Source: a halophilic archaeon SHRA6
Lineage (GTDB): Archaea; Halobacteriota; Halobacteria; Halobacteriales; Haloferacaceae
NCBI GenBank assembly: GCA_005239175.1
Contig: SOPS01000004.1
Location: 372,001-436,000 of the forward strand
Direction: 5' to 3'
DNA: 64,000 bases
The notes beneath the pieces are model-generated. The model saw only the letters and a program-made list of their open reading frames with translations, had not been told where the DNA came from and ran no database searches. A program made the position numbers and the translations under genes. Numbering within the stretch: position 1 is the first letter of the stretch; each line of letters starts with the position of its first letter. This document shows positions 26,975 to 57,165 of this stretch, piece after piece.

Positions 26975-27955
26975 ATGGGTAACTCGGACCTTCGATCGCT
27001 TGCGTCGATCACGGAGCTCCCGTTCGCGGAGTGTACCGGCTCGACGGTCGCCGTAGATGCACACAACTGGCTGTACCGGTACCTCACGACGACAGTCAAA
27101 TGGACGAACGACGCAGTCTACACGACCAATGATGGCACTGAGGTCGCAAACCTGATCGGCGTCATCAAAGGACTCCCGAAGTTTTTCGAACACGAACTCG
27201 TCCCGATCTTCGTCTTCGACGGCGGCGTAACAGAGCTCAAAGACGACGAGGTCGAACGCCGTCGCGAACAACGGCGTGACGCCGAGGAGCAACTCGAAGC
27301 CGCAAAAGAACGTGGCGACGCAGTCGCCGCTGCCCGCCTCGAAGCGCGGACTCAGCGGCTCACCGAGACGATTCAGGAGACAACCCGCGAACTGCTGTCG
27401 ATCCTCGACGTACCGTACATCGACGCGCCAGCCGAGGGTGAGGCACAGGCGTCGTACATGAACCGGATCGGCGACGTTGATTACGTCGGCAGTGAGGACT
27501 ACGACACATTGCTTTTCGGCGCACCCAGAACTCTCAGGGGGATTACGAGCAAGGGCCATCCAGAGCTGATGGACCTCGAAGCGACGCTCGATCGCCACGA
27601 CATCACCTACGAACAGCTCGTTGACGTGGGGATTCTCTGTGGAACCGACTTCAACGAGGGTGTTCACGGAATCGGTCCCAAGACCGCGATCAAACTGATC
27701 CACCAACACGGCGATCTGTTTGCCGTGCTCGAAGCGCGAGGCGAGCACATTTCACACGCCGATCGCATCCGTGAGCTGTTCTTCGATCCTCCGGTAACAG
27801 ACGACTACACGATTCGAACTGACGTGAATCCAGACGTTGACGCTGCCAGAGAGTACGTCGTCGACACCTGGGAGATCGACGCCAGCGAGGTCGAGCGCGG
27901 CTTCGAGCGGATCGAATCTTCGATGGTCCAGACCGGACTCAACGACTGGCTTTGA
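26975..27955 (+). CDS. fen: Flap endonuclease 1
   Basis: 326 residues, archaeal FEN-1 length. The N-terminal domain has the metal ligand Asp28 in [14 protein letters not shown] and [11 protein letters not shown]. The arch carries a charged helical region (about 90-125). The internal domain has [12 protein letters not shown] (acidic ligands) and [14 protein letters not shown], and a helix-hairpin-helix at [20 protein letters not shown]. The C-terminal eight residues QTGLNDWL form a PIP box that binds PCNA. The enzyme removes 5' flaps during lagging-strand maturation and repair. It is a single-gene unit. Confidence 0.97.
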
Positions 27956-28024
27956 GATTCTCCCACGGCTGAACCCCCAGATAGTACCAGTAACTTTGTG
28001 CTGGCGAGCAAAATTAGGAAATTG

Positions 28025-28636
28025 ATGGAGCTCAGTGACGACACGCTCTCCGTTTCCCGGGAGCTTTCAAAACTCGACAAAGACGTACTTGAATTTACCA
28101 GGATCCTCGACGCCTGCGACGTGGATTATGTTATTGTCAGTGGGTACGTCGCCATCCTTACTGGACGCTCTCGATCGACTGAGGATATCGACGTTATTCT
28201 ACAGTCGCTGTCTGAAACTGCGACGGCGCAGTTGGTTTCTGAACTCAAAACGCAGGGGTATTGGGGCATGGCGATGCCGCTCGATGAGATGTATTCGATG
28301 TTGAGTGACGGCAGTCGGATCCGGGTTGCCGAAGACGGACAGATGTTTCCGAACTTCGAGCTGTGGTTTGTTTCGAACGATGCGGAACGCGAGGCACTCT
28401 CGAACCCGCTCACCGTTGTATTCGACGAGGGGCAGATCGATATCAGTCCGCTCGAACTGCAAATTGCGTACAAACTTCGGCTTGCGCACGCTGCAGACAG
28501 CCTCAGCGGGAAAGATTTCGAGGACGCACTTCACTTGTATTTGACCTTCGAGGGACAATTTAACACGGAGCGGCTCGAAATGTACGTCAACGAGCTTGGA
28601 GTGCAAGACTACTATGCTGAACTCACAGGAGTTTGA
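28025..28636 (+). CDS. AbiEii-like nucleotidyltransferase (MNT fold)
   Basis: 203 residues from ATG 28025; a GTG at 27998 would add nine. The polymerase-beta-like signature is present: VSGYVAILTGRSRSTEDIDV, where Ser-Gly (39-40) replaces GG and Asp54/Asp56 are metal ligands. A later ELQIAYKLRLAHAADSLSGK and KDFEDALHLY match the 'K..L....R...KD..D' end of AbiEii/DUF1814-type toxins. It overlaps by 23 bases with a small basic protein. It has lower GC and fewer CGATCG than its neighbours, hinting at transfer. This enzyme fold in such gene pairs can modify tRNA or other RNA by adding nucleotides. A defence or toxin-antitoxin role is a fair guess, not shown. Confidence 0.8.
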   Translation: MELSDDTLSVSRELSKLDKDVLEFTRILDACDVDYVIVSGYVAILTGRSRSTEDIDVILQSLSETATAQLVSELKTQGYWGMAMPLDEMYSMLSDGSRIRVAEDGQMFPNFELWFVSNDAEREALSNPLTVVFDEGQIDISPLELQIAYKLRLAHAADSLSGKDFEDALHLYLTFEGQFNTERLEMYVNELGVQDYYAELTGV

Positions 28637-28844
28637 GGACAAAAAACGCCAGAACACAGAGAAACGGCGTGCGATGATCAAACGGTGGGCCGAGTATGTT
28701 CGGACCCACGACGATCGTGAGTGGTCACGCCAGCAGAATCGCCTCATTGACTCCCAGCTCCAGTCGGCAAACGACATGGCCGCTACTGACGACACGGATC
28801 CAGTCCGATTTGTAGTTGCTCGCGATCGCCTCCGCGATCGATGA
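28614..28844 (+). CDS. Small charged protein coupled to the nucleotidyltransferase
   Basis: 76 residues from ATG 28614 in the +2 frame, overlapping the upstream gene by 23 bases. It is helical and strongly charged: EFEDKKRQNTEKRRAMIKRW, then REWSRQQNRLIDSQLQSAND and an acidic-basic tail ending RDRLRDR. No Cys and no membrane segment. The tight overlap indicates co-translation with the nucleotidyltransferase; the size fits an antitoxin or targeting subunit, but it does not resemble AbiEi or HEPN proteins. No known family was recognised. Confidence 0.7.
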   Translation: MLNSQEFEDKKRQNTEKRRAMIKRWAEYVRTHDDREWSRQQNRLIDSQLQSANDMAATDDTDPVRFVVARDRLRDR

Positions 28845-28937
28845 CGTCAGACAGACACCTTCACCGATAAAAAATTGATTGGGAGCATCACAGCCGGATA
28901 CGGCCCATTTTTTGCCCGCCGGCACGGTGGAATCGAT

Positions 28938-29201
28938 ATGGACACAGACGAGATCGAAGCGACGATCGAAGCCGCGATCGAGGATGCTGACGCCACTGTA
29001 ATGATGCCACGCGTTCACAACGACGAGGCCGAAGACGCACACTACGGCGCAATTGTTGTCTCTCCGGCATTCGAGGGAAAATCTCTCGTCGAACAACACA
29101 AACTGGTTTACGACGCGCTCGGCGATCGGATGACGACGGACATCCACGCGATGGAGATCAAGACGTACACGCCCGAAGAGTACGAGGCCCTCGAAGGATA
29201 G
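28938..29201 (+). CDS. BolA family protein
   Basis: 87 residues from ATG 28938. The BolA fold is recognisable by HYGAIVVSPAFEGKSLVEQH (invariant His and the GKSLVEQHKLVYDAL helix) and the C-terminal IHAMEIKTYTPEEYEAL with the conserved His. BolA proteins partner monothiol glutaredoxins in iron-sulfur trafficking or bind DNA; the conserved His is the cluster ligand. Haloarchaea have few BolA proteins and no glutaredoxin lies here. The gene is followed, nine bases on, by an AGE epimerase, suggesting one transcript. Confidence 0.9.
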   Translation: MDTDEIEATIEAAIEDADATVMMPRVHNDEAEDAHYGAIVVSPAFEGKSLVEQHKLVYDALGDRMTTDIHAMEIKTYTPEEYEALEG

Positions 29202-54662: not shown

Positions 54663-56036
54663 CTATCTGCCGTGCGGCGAGAGCGGATGATGAACCGTGT
54701 GCTCGGCGCAGGCATCCGGCTCCTCGATCGTCCGTGTCCGTCCATCAGGCCATCGAATCGTCGCTGACAGCGGGGTTCGATCTGTTCCGAGCCCGAAGTG
54801 AGCAACAGGCTCTGACTGGCAGAGATAGCTACTCCCGGCGTCGATCACGCGGCGATCAGTCCCGGCAGTTGTCTCCACCTCGACGAGCGCACCCCGGGCT
54901 GGAGCACCGTACTGTGTGGTTGGCCGTACCCGAAGCCAGCGATTGTCGTTCGGGACCGAAAATAAAGACAGCGGCTGCGCAGAGACCTCTCCATGAACGA
55001 CAAGCAGTTCAAGCGTTCCATCCCCATCGATGTCGGCCACCGTCGCACCAGTCCCGAGCCCGTGGGGCTCAAGGGCGTCGCCCGGATCGATCGGACTGAG
55101 CTGTCGGTTCTCCCACCGAAAGAGGCGGTTTTCCGCACCGATCGCGTTGACGAACAGCTCTTGGCTGCCGTCGTTATCGAAATCGGAAACGACGAGGTTT
55201 CTTACTCGCTCAGAGCCGATCAGTGCCTCCGGTGCGGTTTCGCGGAACCGATCGCCCTCGCGGGCAAATAACCGAGATGGGCCTTCCCAGTTTCCAACTG
55301 CAATGTCGAACCCGCCGCCTGCGTTGTCCAAAAGCGCTGCTCCTCGGGCATTCCCCTCGCCGTCTGTCAGCCCGAATTGTTCGGCGACGTCGACGAAGTG
55401 ACCGCCGTCGTTTTTGAACAGTTTGTTTGGCCCGCGCTCGGCGCCAACGAAGATATCCATCGACTCGGAGACGATCGGCCCAGCAATGACGGATCGGCAG
55501 CCATCGGTGAACCGAACCCCCACAGCTTCAGCCATGTCGGTGAGCTCACCGTCGTCTCCAAGTTCGTAAAACCGTGAGGGGACACCATAGCAGGCGACCA
55601 ACATCCCGTAGCGACCAGTCCCGAATCGATCGACTGCCGCGACCGATCGCCCGGCGTGGAAGTTACCCCGATCGTAGTTCACGTCCAGCCCAAAAACGTC
55701 ACACCACAACTCTCGGTCGTCGTGGGCAATCCGATCGAGAAGCATGTCTCCATTGTCCGTATAGCCCCCGTATGCGTCGGTGTTGTGGACGTAGATCTCC
55801 TCAACACCGTCGGCGTCGACATCGGCGGCTGCGACACCGATAGCCCGTCGGTCGGGATCTGCGAGAATTCCACAGCTCCGATCGCGGATCTTCTGCCCCT
55901 CGAACGTGTACAACCGGTTGGGACACCCAAACCCCGTGACGAACAGCATCGGCCCGTCGGCACCGGGAGTCACCGCGACCCCATAGCCTTTCATCGGCGG
56001 GTTCTCGCCCAACCGTTCGGACCGATCGACGAACAT
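54663..56036 (-). CDS. CRTAC1-type FG-GAP beta-propeller protein
   Basis: 457 residues from ATG 56036; a TTG four codons upstream is less likely. Calcium-loop FG-GAP repeats occur as ADVDADGVEEIYVHNTDAYG, DFDNDGSQELFVNAIGAENR, and DIDGDGTLELLVVHGEV; the C-terminal RWPDGRTRTIEEPDACAEHT belongs to the ASPIC/UnbV domain of CRTAC1 proteins. There is no signal peptide, which is odd since most relatives are secreted. A seven-bladed propeller binding calcium is likely. It is upstream of, and may be cotranscribed with, the glycerate kinase gene. Role unknown. Confidence 0.82.
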   Translation of the reverse strand: MFVDRSERLGENPPMKGYGVAVTPGADGPMLFVTGFGCPNRLYTFEGQKIRDRSCGILADPDRRAIGVAAADVDADGVEEIYVHNTDAYGGYTDNGDMLLDRIAHDDRELWCDVFGLDVNYDRGNFHAGRSVAAVDRFGTGRYGMLVACYGVPSRFYELGDDGELTDMAEAVGVRFTDGCRSVIAGPIVSESMDIFVGAERGPNKLFKNDGGHFVDVAEQFGLTDGEGNARGAALLDNAGGGFDIAVGNWEGPSRLFAREGDRFRETAPEALIGSERVRNLVVSDFDNDGSQELFVNAIGAENRLFRWENRQLSPIDPGDALEPHGLGTGATVADIDGDGTLELLVVHGEVSAQPLSLFSVPNDNRWLRVRPTTQYGAPARGALVEVETTAGTDRRVIDAGSSYLCQSEPVAHFGLGTDRTPLSATIRWPDGRTRTIEEPDACAEHTVHHPLSPHGR

Positions 56037-56159
56037 ACACTCTTTCAAACGGCCACCGTATTTGAACGCACGGATCAGCGTACCTGCTGGTGCTTCAGAC
56101 CGAGAGCTGCAGGCCAGTGCTATCAGACAAATGACGTTATTCGGGCTGAGAGGTGTGCA

Positions 56160-56342
56160 CTACGAGCGCGAAAATCCGAGCGGTTTTTTGCAGTTTTTAC
56201 AGAGGAATAGGTCGTGGTTTTCGAAGAGTGAAATCGAATTATCCTCTGTGGCTTCGATTTCGGATACTTCGCCCTCACGTTCAAGCTCGTCAAGGGATTC
56301 GATCTCTGTCTCACAGTCTGGGCACGACAATGTGTCTGACAT
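56160..56342 (-). CDS. Small zinc-ribbon protein, 60 residues
   Basis: The product has CPDCETEI (Cys7/Cys10) and CKNCKKPLGF (Cys48/Cys51), a two-CxxC zinc ribbon separated by an acidic stretch (EGEVSEIEATEDNSISLFEN). No other domain. It may bind RNA, DNA or a protein. Divergent from the uspA promoter region on the right. Confidence 0.72.
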   Translation of the reverse strand: MSDTLSCPDCETEIESLDELEREGEVSEIEATEDNSISLFENHDLFLCKNCKKPLGFSRS

Positions 56343-56658
56343 ACACTAACATACGCACTGCGAATATATAGTCGTGGTTCGGATGTGCAACCAATACACT
56401 AACCAGATGAGAGTACGGAGTTTACCATGATAGTGCATCGCAACTGCACATACGCCGGAGGGCAGAAATTCCCTGGCCGGCCGAAAATATCATATATCAT
56501 ATTATAATTTTTCACTCATCCGATGGTCGTACAGAGCCAATATCTCTCCAAACAACCGATTTAGCCACGAGTTTGGGGTGTAGATTGTCCCAAAGTGTGA
56601 TAATTCCCGTCACACTTTTTCAGGTAGTTGTACAATATTAGAACGGTCGGTGATATGC
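56343..56658. other. Intergenic regulatory region before uspA, no gene
   Basis: 316 bases without a coding frame. It contains an AT-rich block (AAAATATCATATATCATATT, 56482-56501) and, near the right end, the perfect inverted repeat described separately. No tRNA or structured RNA was recognised. Confidence 0.6.
56592..56618. promoter_or_regulatory. Perfect 9+9 inverted repeat upstream of uspA
   Basis: AAAGTGTGA-TAATTCCCG-TCACACTTT is perfectly symmetric with nine-base arms and a nine-base spacer. It ends about 15 bases before the TATA-like TACAATATTA (56631-56640) and 41 bases before the ATG. Position and symmetry make it a strong candidate operator for a dimeric regulator acting on uspA. Confidence 0.65.
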
Positions 56659-57165
56659 ATGTACGACAAAATCCTCTACCCAACAGACGGGAGTTCGATC
56701 GCAGAATCAGCAATTGAGCACGCTCAAAACCAGGCCAAACAGCATGACGCAACCGTTCACGTGCTGTACGTGATCGATAGCGAACACATGGGGCTCGGGT
56801 TGGCCAGCAATCTTGATCTGGAGGGGGGTCCTGGGATGGTTGGAGCCCCAACAGAGGGTGCGCCGGGAATGGTCGGCAGCCGGCCCACAGGGCGGGACGA
56901 CCTCGAAGACGAGGGTACTGGAATCGTCAATACCGTTGCCGAACAATTCGAGGGCGTCGAAACGCAGACGGCCGTCCGTTTCGGCTCACCCTACGAAACG
57001 ATACTCGAGTACGTAGACGACGCCGGGATCGACATGATCGTGATGAGTACCCACGGCCGATCGGGAATGCAGCGATACATCATCGGAAGTGTGACCGAAA
57101 AAGTCGTCAGATTTGCCGACGTGCCAGTGCTAACCGTTCGTGCAGCCGAGTCCAAGAAAAAATAA
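56659..57165 (+). CDS. uspA: Universal stress protein (UspA family)
   Basis: 168 residues from ATG 56659 (a GTG at 56650 adds three). The Rossmann-like fold begins YDKILYPTDGSSIAESAIEH and ends with the ATP-binding MSTHGRSGMQRYIIGSVTEK (G-x-x-G...GS-V). A glycine-rich insertion (GGPGMVGAPTEGAPGMVGSR, about residues 56-75) with two near-identical PGMVG repeats interrupts the usual loop; it is absent from typical UspA proteins. Members respond to starvation or osmotic stress. The upstream inverted repeat suggests regulated expression. Confidence 0.92.
   Translation: MYDKILYPTDGSSIAESAIEHAQNQAKQHDATVHVLYVIDSEHMGLGLASNLDLEGGPGMVGAPTEGAPGMVGSRPTGRDDLEDEGTGIVNTVAEQFEGVETQTAVRFGSPYETILEYVDDAGIDMIVMSTHGRSGMQRYIIGSVTEKVVRFADVPVLTVRAAESKKK

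What the first reader, a model, noticed from the sequence alone, without database searches (positions are those of the whole stretch)
28025..28844. Nucleotidyltransferase with an overlapping small partner, base use unlike neighbours
An AbiEii-like nucleotidyltransferase overlaps a 76-residue charged protein by 23 bases. The pair shows fewer CGATCG and lower GC than surrounding genes, consistent with transfer. It does not look like AbiE (no AbiEi upstream) or HEPN/MNT, so it may be a new toxin-antitoxin or defence pair.
Basis: partly seen in the sequence, partly recalled or inferred. Interest (0 to 1): 0.6.

Follow-up and report, generated by a model that had tools for sequence, protein, structure and literature searches.

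The report
Mobile archaeal MenT-like toxin-antitoxin pair
Two overlapping genes in this salt-loving archaeon look like a portable poison-and-antidote pair of a kind not yet described in archaea: a nucleotide-adding enzyme related in shape to a tuberculosis tRNA-disabling toxin, followed by a small helical protein that is always kept beside it and often kept after the enzyme is lost.

Summary
The pair is real. A 203-aa nucleotidyltransferase (NT, 28025-28636) overlaps a 76-aa helical protein (SM, 28614-28844) by 23 bp. The GC dip is confirmed. The CGATCG deficit is not: 4 sites against about 5 expected. Against unrelated haloarchaea, DNA homology covers almost exactly 28020-28845, so the two genes travel as a bare cassette. 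Three relatives have fen1 and bolA directly adjacent, without the pair.

Linkage is total where tested. All 82 full-length NT copies in 391 Halobacteria genomes, and all 20 sampled copies in other Halobacteriota, are followed by SM, nearly always overlapping. No intact NT lacks SM, but about half of listed SM genes (82 of 150) lack an intact NT, often keeping its 3' stub. This asymmetry points to NT as toxin and SM as antitoxin.

The NT model's best PDB match is the MenT1 tRNA-nucleotidyltransferase toxin, and MenT1's four catalytic residues have conserved counterparts. Neither protein passes any Pfam or NCBIfam cut-off. SM matches no solved structure and lies downstream, whereas MenA1 lies upstream.

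Best reading: a new archaeal MenT-like toxin-antitoxin family with its own antitoxin. Toxicity, tRNA targeting and SM-NT binding are inferred, not shown. No evidence for a defence role was found.

The parts
28025..28636 (+). NT: 203-aa MenT-like nucleotidyltransferase, proposed toxin
   Evidence: ORF; dN/dS 0.067; AlphaFold model pLDDT 93, best PDB match MenT1 8an5/8an4, E 6e-8
28142..28192 (+). NTase signature G40-Y41...R50-x-T52-x-D54-x-D56. D54 and T52 correspond to MenT1 D41 and T39
   Evidence: R50 and D54 invariant, T52 and D56 nearly invariant, in an 18-member alignment spanning haloarchaea and other Halobacteriota
28358..28360 (+). E112, invariant (probable third acidic residue of the site)
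28472..28525 (+). K150 ... D164-x-E166-D167. K150 corresponds to MenT1 K137; D164 (or D167) to D152
   Evidence: invariant; MenT1 residues from PMC10435456; correspondence made by motif and spacing
28614..28844 (+). SM: 76-aa charged, two-helix protein, proposed antitoxin
   Evidence: ORF; dN/dS 0.085; helices 4-31 and 39-58 in a medium-confidence model, pLDDT 71; W37 and R18 invariant across the phylum
28614..28636 (+). 23-nt overlap of NT 3' end and SM 5' end
   Evidence: same offset in most copies; some copies have shorter overlaps (L096, L107, L108); orphan SM copies still carry the NT stop 23 nt into SM
28020..28845 (+). Unit of DNA homology shared with unrelated haloarchaea: the mobile cassette
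   Evidence: blastn alignment ends; no flanking terminal repeats
26975..27955 (+). Flanking gene fen1 (flap endonuclease-1), not part of the module
   Evidence: TIGR03674, 398 bits; directly adjacent to bolA in relatives without the pair
28938..29201 (+). Flanking gene bolA, not part of the module
   Evidence: PF01722, E 4e-19

Best explanation
The two genes are a mobile type II-like toxin-antitoxin module. NT is the toxin, a MenT1-like nucleotidyltransferase that most probably adds nucleotides to the 3' acceptor end of tRNA and so stops translation. SM is the antitoxin, a small helical protein without a DNA-binding domain, which probably wraps along NT and closes or inactivates its active site, as MenA1 does to MenT1. 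SM starts inside the end of NT, so its translation is probably coupled to that of NT. SHOWN HERE BY COMPUTATION: the two-gene unit, its linkage across one archaeal phylum, the conserved active site, the MenT1 fold match, horizontal transfer, and the one-way loss of NT. INFERRED: toxicity, tRNA as target, direct SM-NT binding, translational coupling.
For: (1) Obligate pairing. All 82 full-length uninterrupted NT genes in 391 Halobacteria genomes have SM directly downstream: 68 from the hit lists and the other 14 read from sequence. All 20 sampled NT homologues in other Halobacteriota also have it. (2) One-way loss. Of 150 listed SM genes, 82 lack a full-length NT, 32 of them beside detected NT remnants. 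Most orphans inspected keep a short NT C-terminal stub with its stop 23 nt into SM, so NT was deleted and SM kept. Random breakage in proportion to length (612 vs 231 nt) would leave about 27% lone NTs; none of 82 is P about 4e-12 by simple binomial, ignoring relatedness. Orphan SMs remain under purifying selection (median dN/dS 0.24 vs 0.15 when paired). (3) Active site. R50, T52, D54, K150 and D164/D167 are invariant or nearly so; the MenT1 equivalents D41, K137 and D152 are needed for toxicity (PMC10435456). (4) Fold. The model (pLDDT 93) matches MenT1 8an5/8an4/8rr5 best over its whole length, E 6e-8 to 6e-7. (5) Antitoxin analogy. MenA1 is 68 aa, two helices, no DNA-binding domain; SM is 76 aa with two predicted helices. 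(6) Mobility. Bare cassette, plasmid copies, relatives without the pair.
Against: No experiment shows toxicity. Sequence similarity to MenT1 is barely detectable (E 0.06-0.4; 17-19% identity by structure). The fold also matches antibiotic-modifying enzymes ANT(2'')-Ia and LnuA. SM has no detectable similarity to any solved protein, MenA1 included, and gene order is the reverse of menA1-menT1. Part of the selection signal in orphan SMs may predate loss of NT. No complex could be modelled with the tools.
Confidence: 0.72

Rival explanations
1. Roles reversed, as in HEPN/MNT (type VII): SM is the toxin and NT is an antitoxin that inactivates it by adding nucleotides.
For: In HEPN/MNT the nucleotidyltransferase is the antitoxin (PMC7641770; PMC11586414). 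SM has invariant polar and aromatic positions.
Against: Intact SM genes persist without NT in about half of listed cases, while intact NT is never without SM: the opposite of what a toxic SM would allow. SM has no HEPN hit and no conserved R-X4-6-H motif. The NT is a two-lobed MenT-size protein, not a minimal NTase.
Confidence: 0.08
2. Not a toxin-antitoxin system: NT modifies a small molecule such as an antibiotic (as ANT or Lnu enzymes do), with SM as an obligate subunit.
For: Foldseek also matches ANT(2'')-Ia (E 7e-5) and LnuA (1e-4); weak lincosamide-NTase HMM hit.
Against: MenT1 matches better and over full length. Orphan SM genes would be useless as subunits yet stay intact. Bacterial aminoglycosides and lincosamides are poor ligands for archaeal ribosomes (general knowledge).
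Confidence: 0.07
3. A defence (abortive-infection) module whose NT is released from SM on virus infection.
For: Patchy, mobile, plasmid-borne distribution; relation to AbiEii/MenT families; weak PADLOC hits to PDC-M21B (best E 0.002) and AbiEii models.
Against: No defence genes next to the window copy or in the plasmid neighbourhoods inspected, apart from a VapBC-like pair near one orphan; no formal defence-island test was made. No hit in phage or IMG/VR records, so no viral counter-copy. This is a role for a toxin-antitoxin module rather than a rival mechanism.
Confidence: 0.15
4. A chromosomal housekeeping RNA-modifying enzyme with a regulatory partner, not toxic.
For: Strong purifying selection on both genes.
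Against: Present in only 30% of Halobacteria genomes, with many decayed remnants, and inserted as a cassette between genes adjacent in relatives.
Confidence: 0.05

Closest known systems
MenAT1 (MenT1/MenA1, Rv0078A/Rv0078B), Mycobacterium tuberculosis
   Same: NT fold and size (203 vs about 196 aa); catalytic T, D, K, D counterparts conserved; partner is a small (76 vs 68 aa) helical protein without a DNA-binding domain; two-gene mobile unit; in many haloarchaeal copies an HTH gene sits next to it, as Rv0078 does beside menAT1
   Different: 17-19% identity by structure and only marginal sequence similarity; SM has no detectable similarity to MenA1; the partner gene is downstream and overlapping, whereas menA1 is upstream; archaeal
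AbiE (AbiEi/AbiEii), type IV toxin-antitoxin
   Same: NT belongs to the wider AbiEii/DUF1814-type nucleotidyltransferase group
   Different: below Pfam AbiEii cut-off; no AbiEi gene; this genome has a separate true AbiEii (G000:C1:514126)
HEPN/MNT (HepT/MntA), type VII
   Same: nucleotidyltransferase plus small helical partner encoded side by side
   Different: SM has no HEPN signature; NT is larger than a minimal NTase; loss pattern says the NTase is the toxin here
DUF6036 / DUF2204 nucleotidyltransferases (Pfam)
   Same: weak sub-threshold similarity across the NTase motif
   Different: no member passes the cut-off; no paper in the held library mentions DUF6036
PygAT, Pyrococcus yayanosii
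   Same: archaeal toxin-antitoxin with an NTase toxin (as described in PMC11375011)
   Different: DUF2253 toxin, reported as typically encoded immediately upstream of a transcriptional regulator; not compared by sequence here

Membership tests
MenAT (MenT toxins) | MenT nucleotidyltransferase fold | tested here: met
   Foldseek top five hits are MenT1 chains, E 6e-8 to 6e-7, TM 0.56-0.72
MenAT (MenT toxins) | Catalytic T/S, D, K, D | tested here: met
   T52, D54, K150, D164/D167 conserved through Halobacteriota; correspondence by motif and spacing to T39, D41, K137, D152
MenAT (MenT toxins) | DUF1814/AbiEii profile membership | tested here: not met
   PF08843 14.8 bits, cut-off 22.5
MenAT (MenT toxins) | Adjacent cognate antitoxin related to a known MenA | tested here: not met
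   SM is adjacent but has no significant match to any PDB chain, 8AN5 included, by sequence or fold, and is downstream
MenAT (MenT toxins) | tRNA 3'-end nucleotide addition; toxicity neutralised by partner | not testable with these tools
   needs bench work
AbiE (type IV TA) | AbiEii toxin over the curated cut-off | tested here: not met
   a true AbiEii is found elsewhere in the genome
AbiE (type IV TA) | AbiEi (HTH) antitoxin directly upstream | tested here: not met
   upstream gene is fen1. In 12 related copies an unrelated DUF7437/TrmB-type HTH gene lies upstream
HEPN/MNT (type VII TA) | HEPN partner with R-X4-6-H | tested here: not met
   no HEPN match; motif not conserved in SM alignments
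Toxin-antitoxin module in general | Conserved two-gene linkage with mobile, patchy distribution | tested here: met
   82/82 and 20/20 linkage; 118 of 391 genomes; plasmids
Toxin-antitoxin module in general | Toxin never intact without antitoxin; antitoxin may be orphan | tested here: met
   0 lone NT against 82 SM without intact NT among listed hits
Toxin-antitoxin module in general | Growth inhibition by one gene, rescue by the other | not testable with these tools
   needs expression in a haloarchaeon

The most novel reading that the evidence does not exclude
A previously unrecognised toxin-antitoxin family found across Halobacteriota (haloarchaea and the methanogen-containing lineages), in which a MenT-fold tRNA nucleotidyltransferase is neutralised by a small helical antitoxin unrelated to MenA, made by translational coupling from inside the toxin gene, and in which cells widely keep the antitoxin alone as an anti-addiction remnant.
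Probability: 0.5. Interest if true: 0.75.

Novelty: new variant of a known kind. Interest (0 to 1): 0.6.

Why it matters
MenT-type toxins that block tRNA are known mainly from Mycobacterium tuberculosis. This would place the same principle across a large archaeal phylum, with a different antitoxin and reversed gene order. It would give annotation to families now left as 'hypothetical protein' on many haloarchaeal plasmids and chromosomes, and offer a simple genetic system (Haloferax) for asking how small antitoxins silence tRNA-modifying enzymes and why orphan antitoxins are kept.

Tried and rejected
AbiE and HEPN/MNT membership tested and rejected. CGATCG depletion tested and rejected. Viral carriage: no relatives in IMG/VR or phage records. 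Terminal repeats or a transposon around the cassette: none convincing. Sigma-70 promoter scan uninformative for an archaeon. SM fold search gave no significant match. Two database hits for SM (STH1 helix, E 0.04; MHC) treated as coiled-coil noise. 14 NT copies that seemed to lack SM in the hit lists were only below the list cut-off: all have it. The upstream HTH gene (DUF7437/TrmB) was considered as a third component: present in 12 close relatives but absent from the window, and the same protein is widespread elsewhere, so it is an optional neighbour.

Full report
WHAT IS THERE. The NT gene runs 28025-28636 (203 aa) and the SM gene 28614-28844 (76 aa), overlapping by 23 nt. Upstream is fen1 and downstream bolA. 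The window lies in a 3.36-Mb haloarchaeal genome; the nearest named relative found is Halalkalirubrum salinum, which has the whole neighbourhood at about 90% DNA identity. Both genes are conserved by selection: dN/dS 0.067 and 0.085 with the overlap excluded. GC is low for the region (53.7% vs 60.5%), but CGATCG is not depleted (4 vs 5.0 expected).

A BARE CASSETTE THAT MOVES. Against haloarchaea of other genera, blastn homology begins at 28016-28020 and ends at 28845-28846, that is, the two genes and nothing else. NT is 82-88% identical to copies in genera whose fen1 is only 69-73% identical to the window's. Copies sit on plasmids of Halorussus, Natrinema, Halalkaliarchaeum, Haladaptatus and others. 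In three relatives fen1 is followed directly by bolA with only short spacing, a site without the pair (L184, L186, L191). The closest outgroup, L180, has an unrelated 0.5-kb spacer there. No terminal repeats were found.

CONSERVED LINKAGE. NT was found in 118 of 391 Halobacteria genomes across 47 of 86 genera, and SM in 162. Of 82 full-length, uninterrupted NT genes, 68 had SM in the hit list; the other 14 were read from sequence and all have it. NT relatives also occur in other lineages of Halobacteriota. I read 20 of those loci, and all 20 have an SM-like gene overlapping the NT end, E 5e-20 to 4e-8. Gene order is always NT then SM. The overlap is 23 nt in most haloarchaeal copies, with some shorter variants.

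WHICH IS THE TOXIN. Among 150 listed SM genes, 68 have an intact NT, 32 have a remnant and 50 have none detectable. Reading 25 such loci showed that most orphans keep a few to about 60 codons of the NT end (for example VEDEYERLKRA) with the NT stop 23 nt into SM; three could not be parsed by the script. So NT was deleted and SM kept. The window's own genome has one such orphan on another contig (G000:C2:882796). No intact NT without SM was seen. Breakage in proportion to gene length would leave about 27% lone NTs; zero of 82 is improbable (about 4e-12 by simple binomial, though relatedness between loci makes that number only a guide). Orphan SM genes still show purifying selection (0.24 vs 0.15 for paired ones), with the caveat that part of this predates NT loss. 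A toxic SM would not persist alone; an antitoxin would. Hence NT = toxin, SM = antitoxin.

HOW IT MOST LIKELY WORKS. The NT model is confident (pLDDT 93). Its best PDB matches are all MenT1 chains (E 6e-8 to 6e-7), followed by MenT3/TglT, ANT(2'')-Ia and LnuA, and CCA-adding enzymes near threshold. MenT1 adds nucleotides to tRNA acceptor ends; D41A, K137A and D152A abolish its toxicity (PMC10435456). The corresponding residues D54, K150 and D164 (or D167) are invariant in NT, and T52, matching the MenT1 phospho-acceptor T39, is nearly so. MenA1 is a 68-aa protein of a long and a short helix, without a DNA-binding domain, that blocks two MenT1 active sites and triggers auto-phosphorylation. SM is 76 aa with predicted helices 4-31 and 39-58 (pLDDT 71) and a conserved core R18...W25-E27-Y28...W37...Q40-Q41-N42...Q48. 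I propose that SM works in the MenA1 manner. That is analogy: no similarity between SM and MenA1 was found. SM starts inside NT, so coupling of translation is likely but untested.

COMPARISON WITH THE KNOWN. No member passes any Pfam or NCBIfam cut-off, and PADLOC gives only weak hits. AbiE and HEPN/MNT are excluded by tested features (see the membership table). A 2009 survey of type II systems reported no archaea-specific system (PMC2701414), and no description of this pair was found in the papers searched. I therefore call it a new variant of a known kind: MenT-like toxin, new antitoxin family, opposite gene order.

AN OPTIONAL THIRD GENE. In 12 close relatives a 190-192-aa HTH gene (DUF7437/TrmB) lies about 70 nt upstream, and those copies share a TATA-like TTTAT(C/T) about 25-30 nt before NT. 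Haloferax prahovense keeps the 59-nt leader without the HTH gene; the window and Halalkalirubrum have lost both. The HTH family is common elsewhere, so it is a recruited regulator at most.

LIMITS. Toxicity, tRNA as target and binding are inferred. Distribution outside Halobacteriota was not testable here. A defence role has no support from this work.

Noticed in passing
G000:C2:882588-883035 (locus L002): The same genome carries a second, decayed copy: NT reduced to its last ~75 codons, SM intact. Possible anti-addiction gene.
   Followed up: partly
L118, L120, L121 (G256, G068, G305): A stretch of about 3 kb with an orphan SM is 99.8% identical in genomes of three different genera (two families), a very recent transfer.
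   Followed up: no
L033-L039, L006, L161, L209 upstream of NT: Conserved HTH gene (DUF7437/TrmB) and TATA-like leader upstream of NT in 12 close relatives, absent in the window.
   Followed up: partly
G000:C1:514126-514791: A true AbiEii gene (139 bits) elsewhere in the same genome.
   Followed up: no
window 56001-56800: Lowest-GC stretch of the window (48%), mostly intergenic, between a 461-aa ORF and a UspA-like ORF (56650-57165).
   Followed up: no
L160 250-896 and 4551-6283 (Natronosalvus rutilus plasmid): Orphan SM lies between a VapBC-like pair and an ArsR-DUF6036 nucleotidyltransferase pair, a cluster of possible toxin-antitoxin genes.
   Followed up: no
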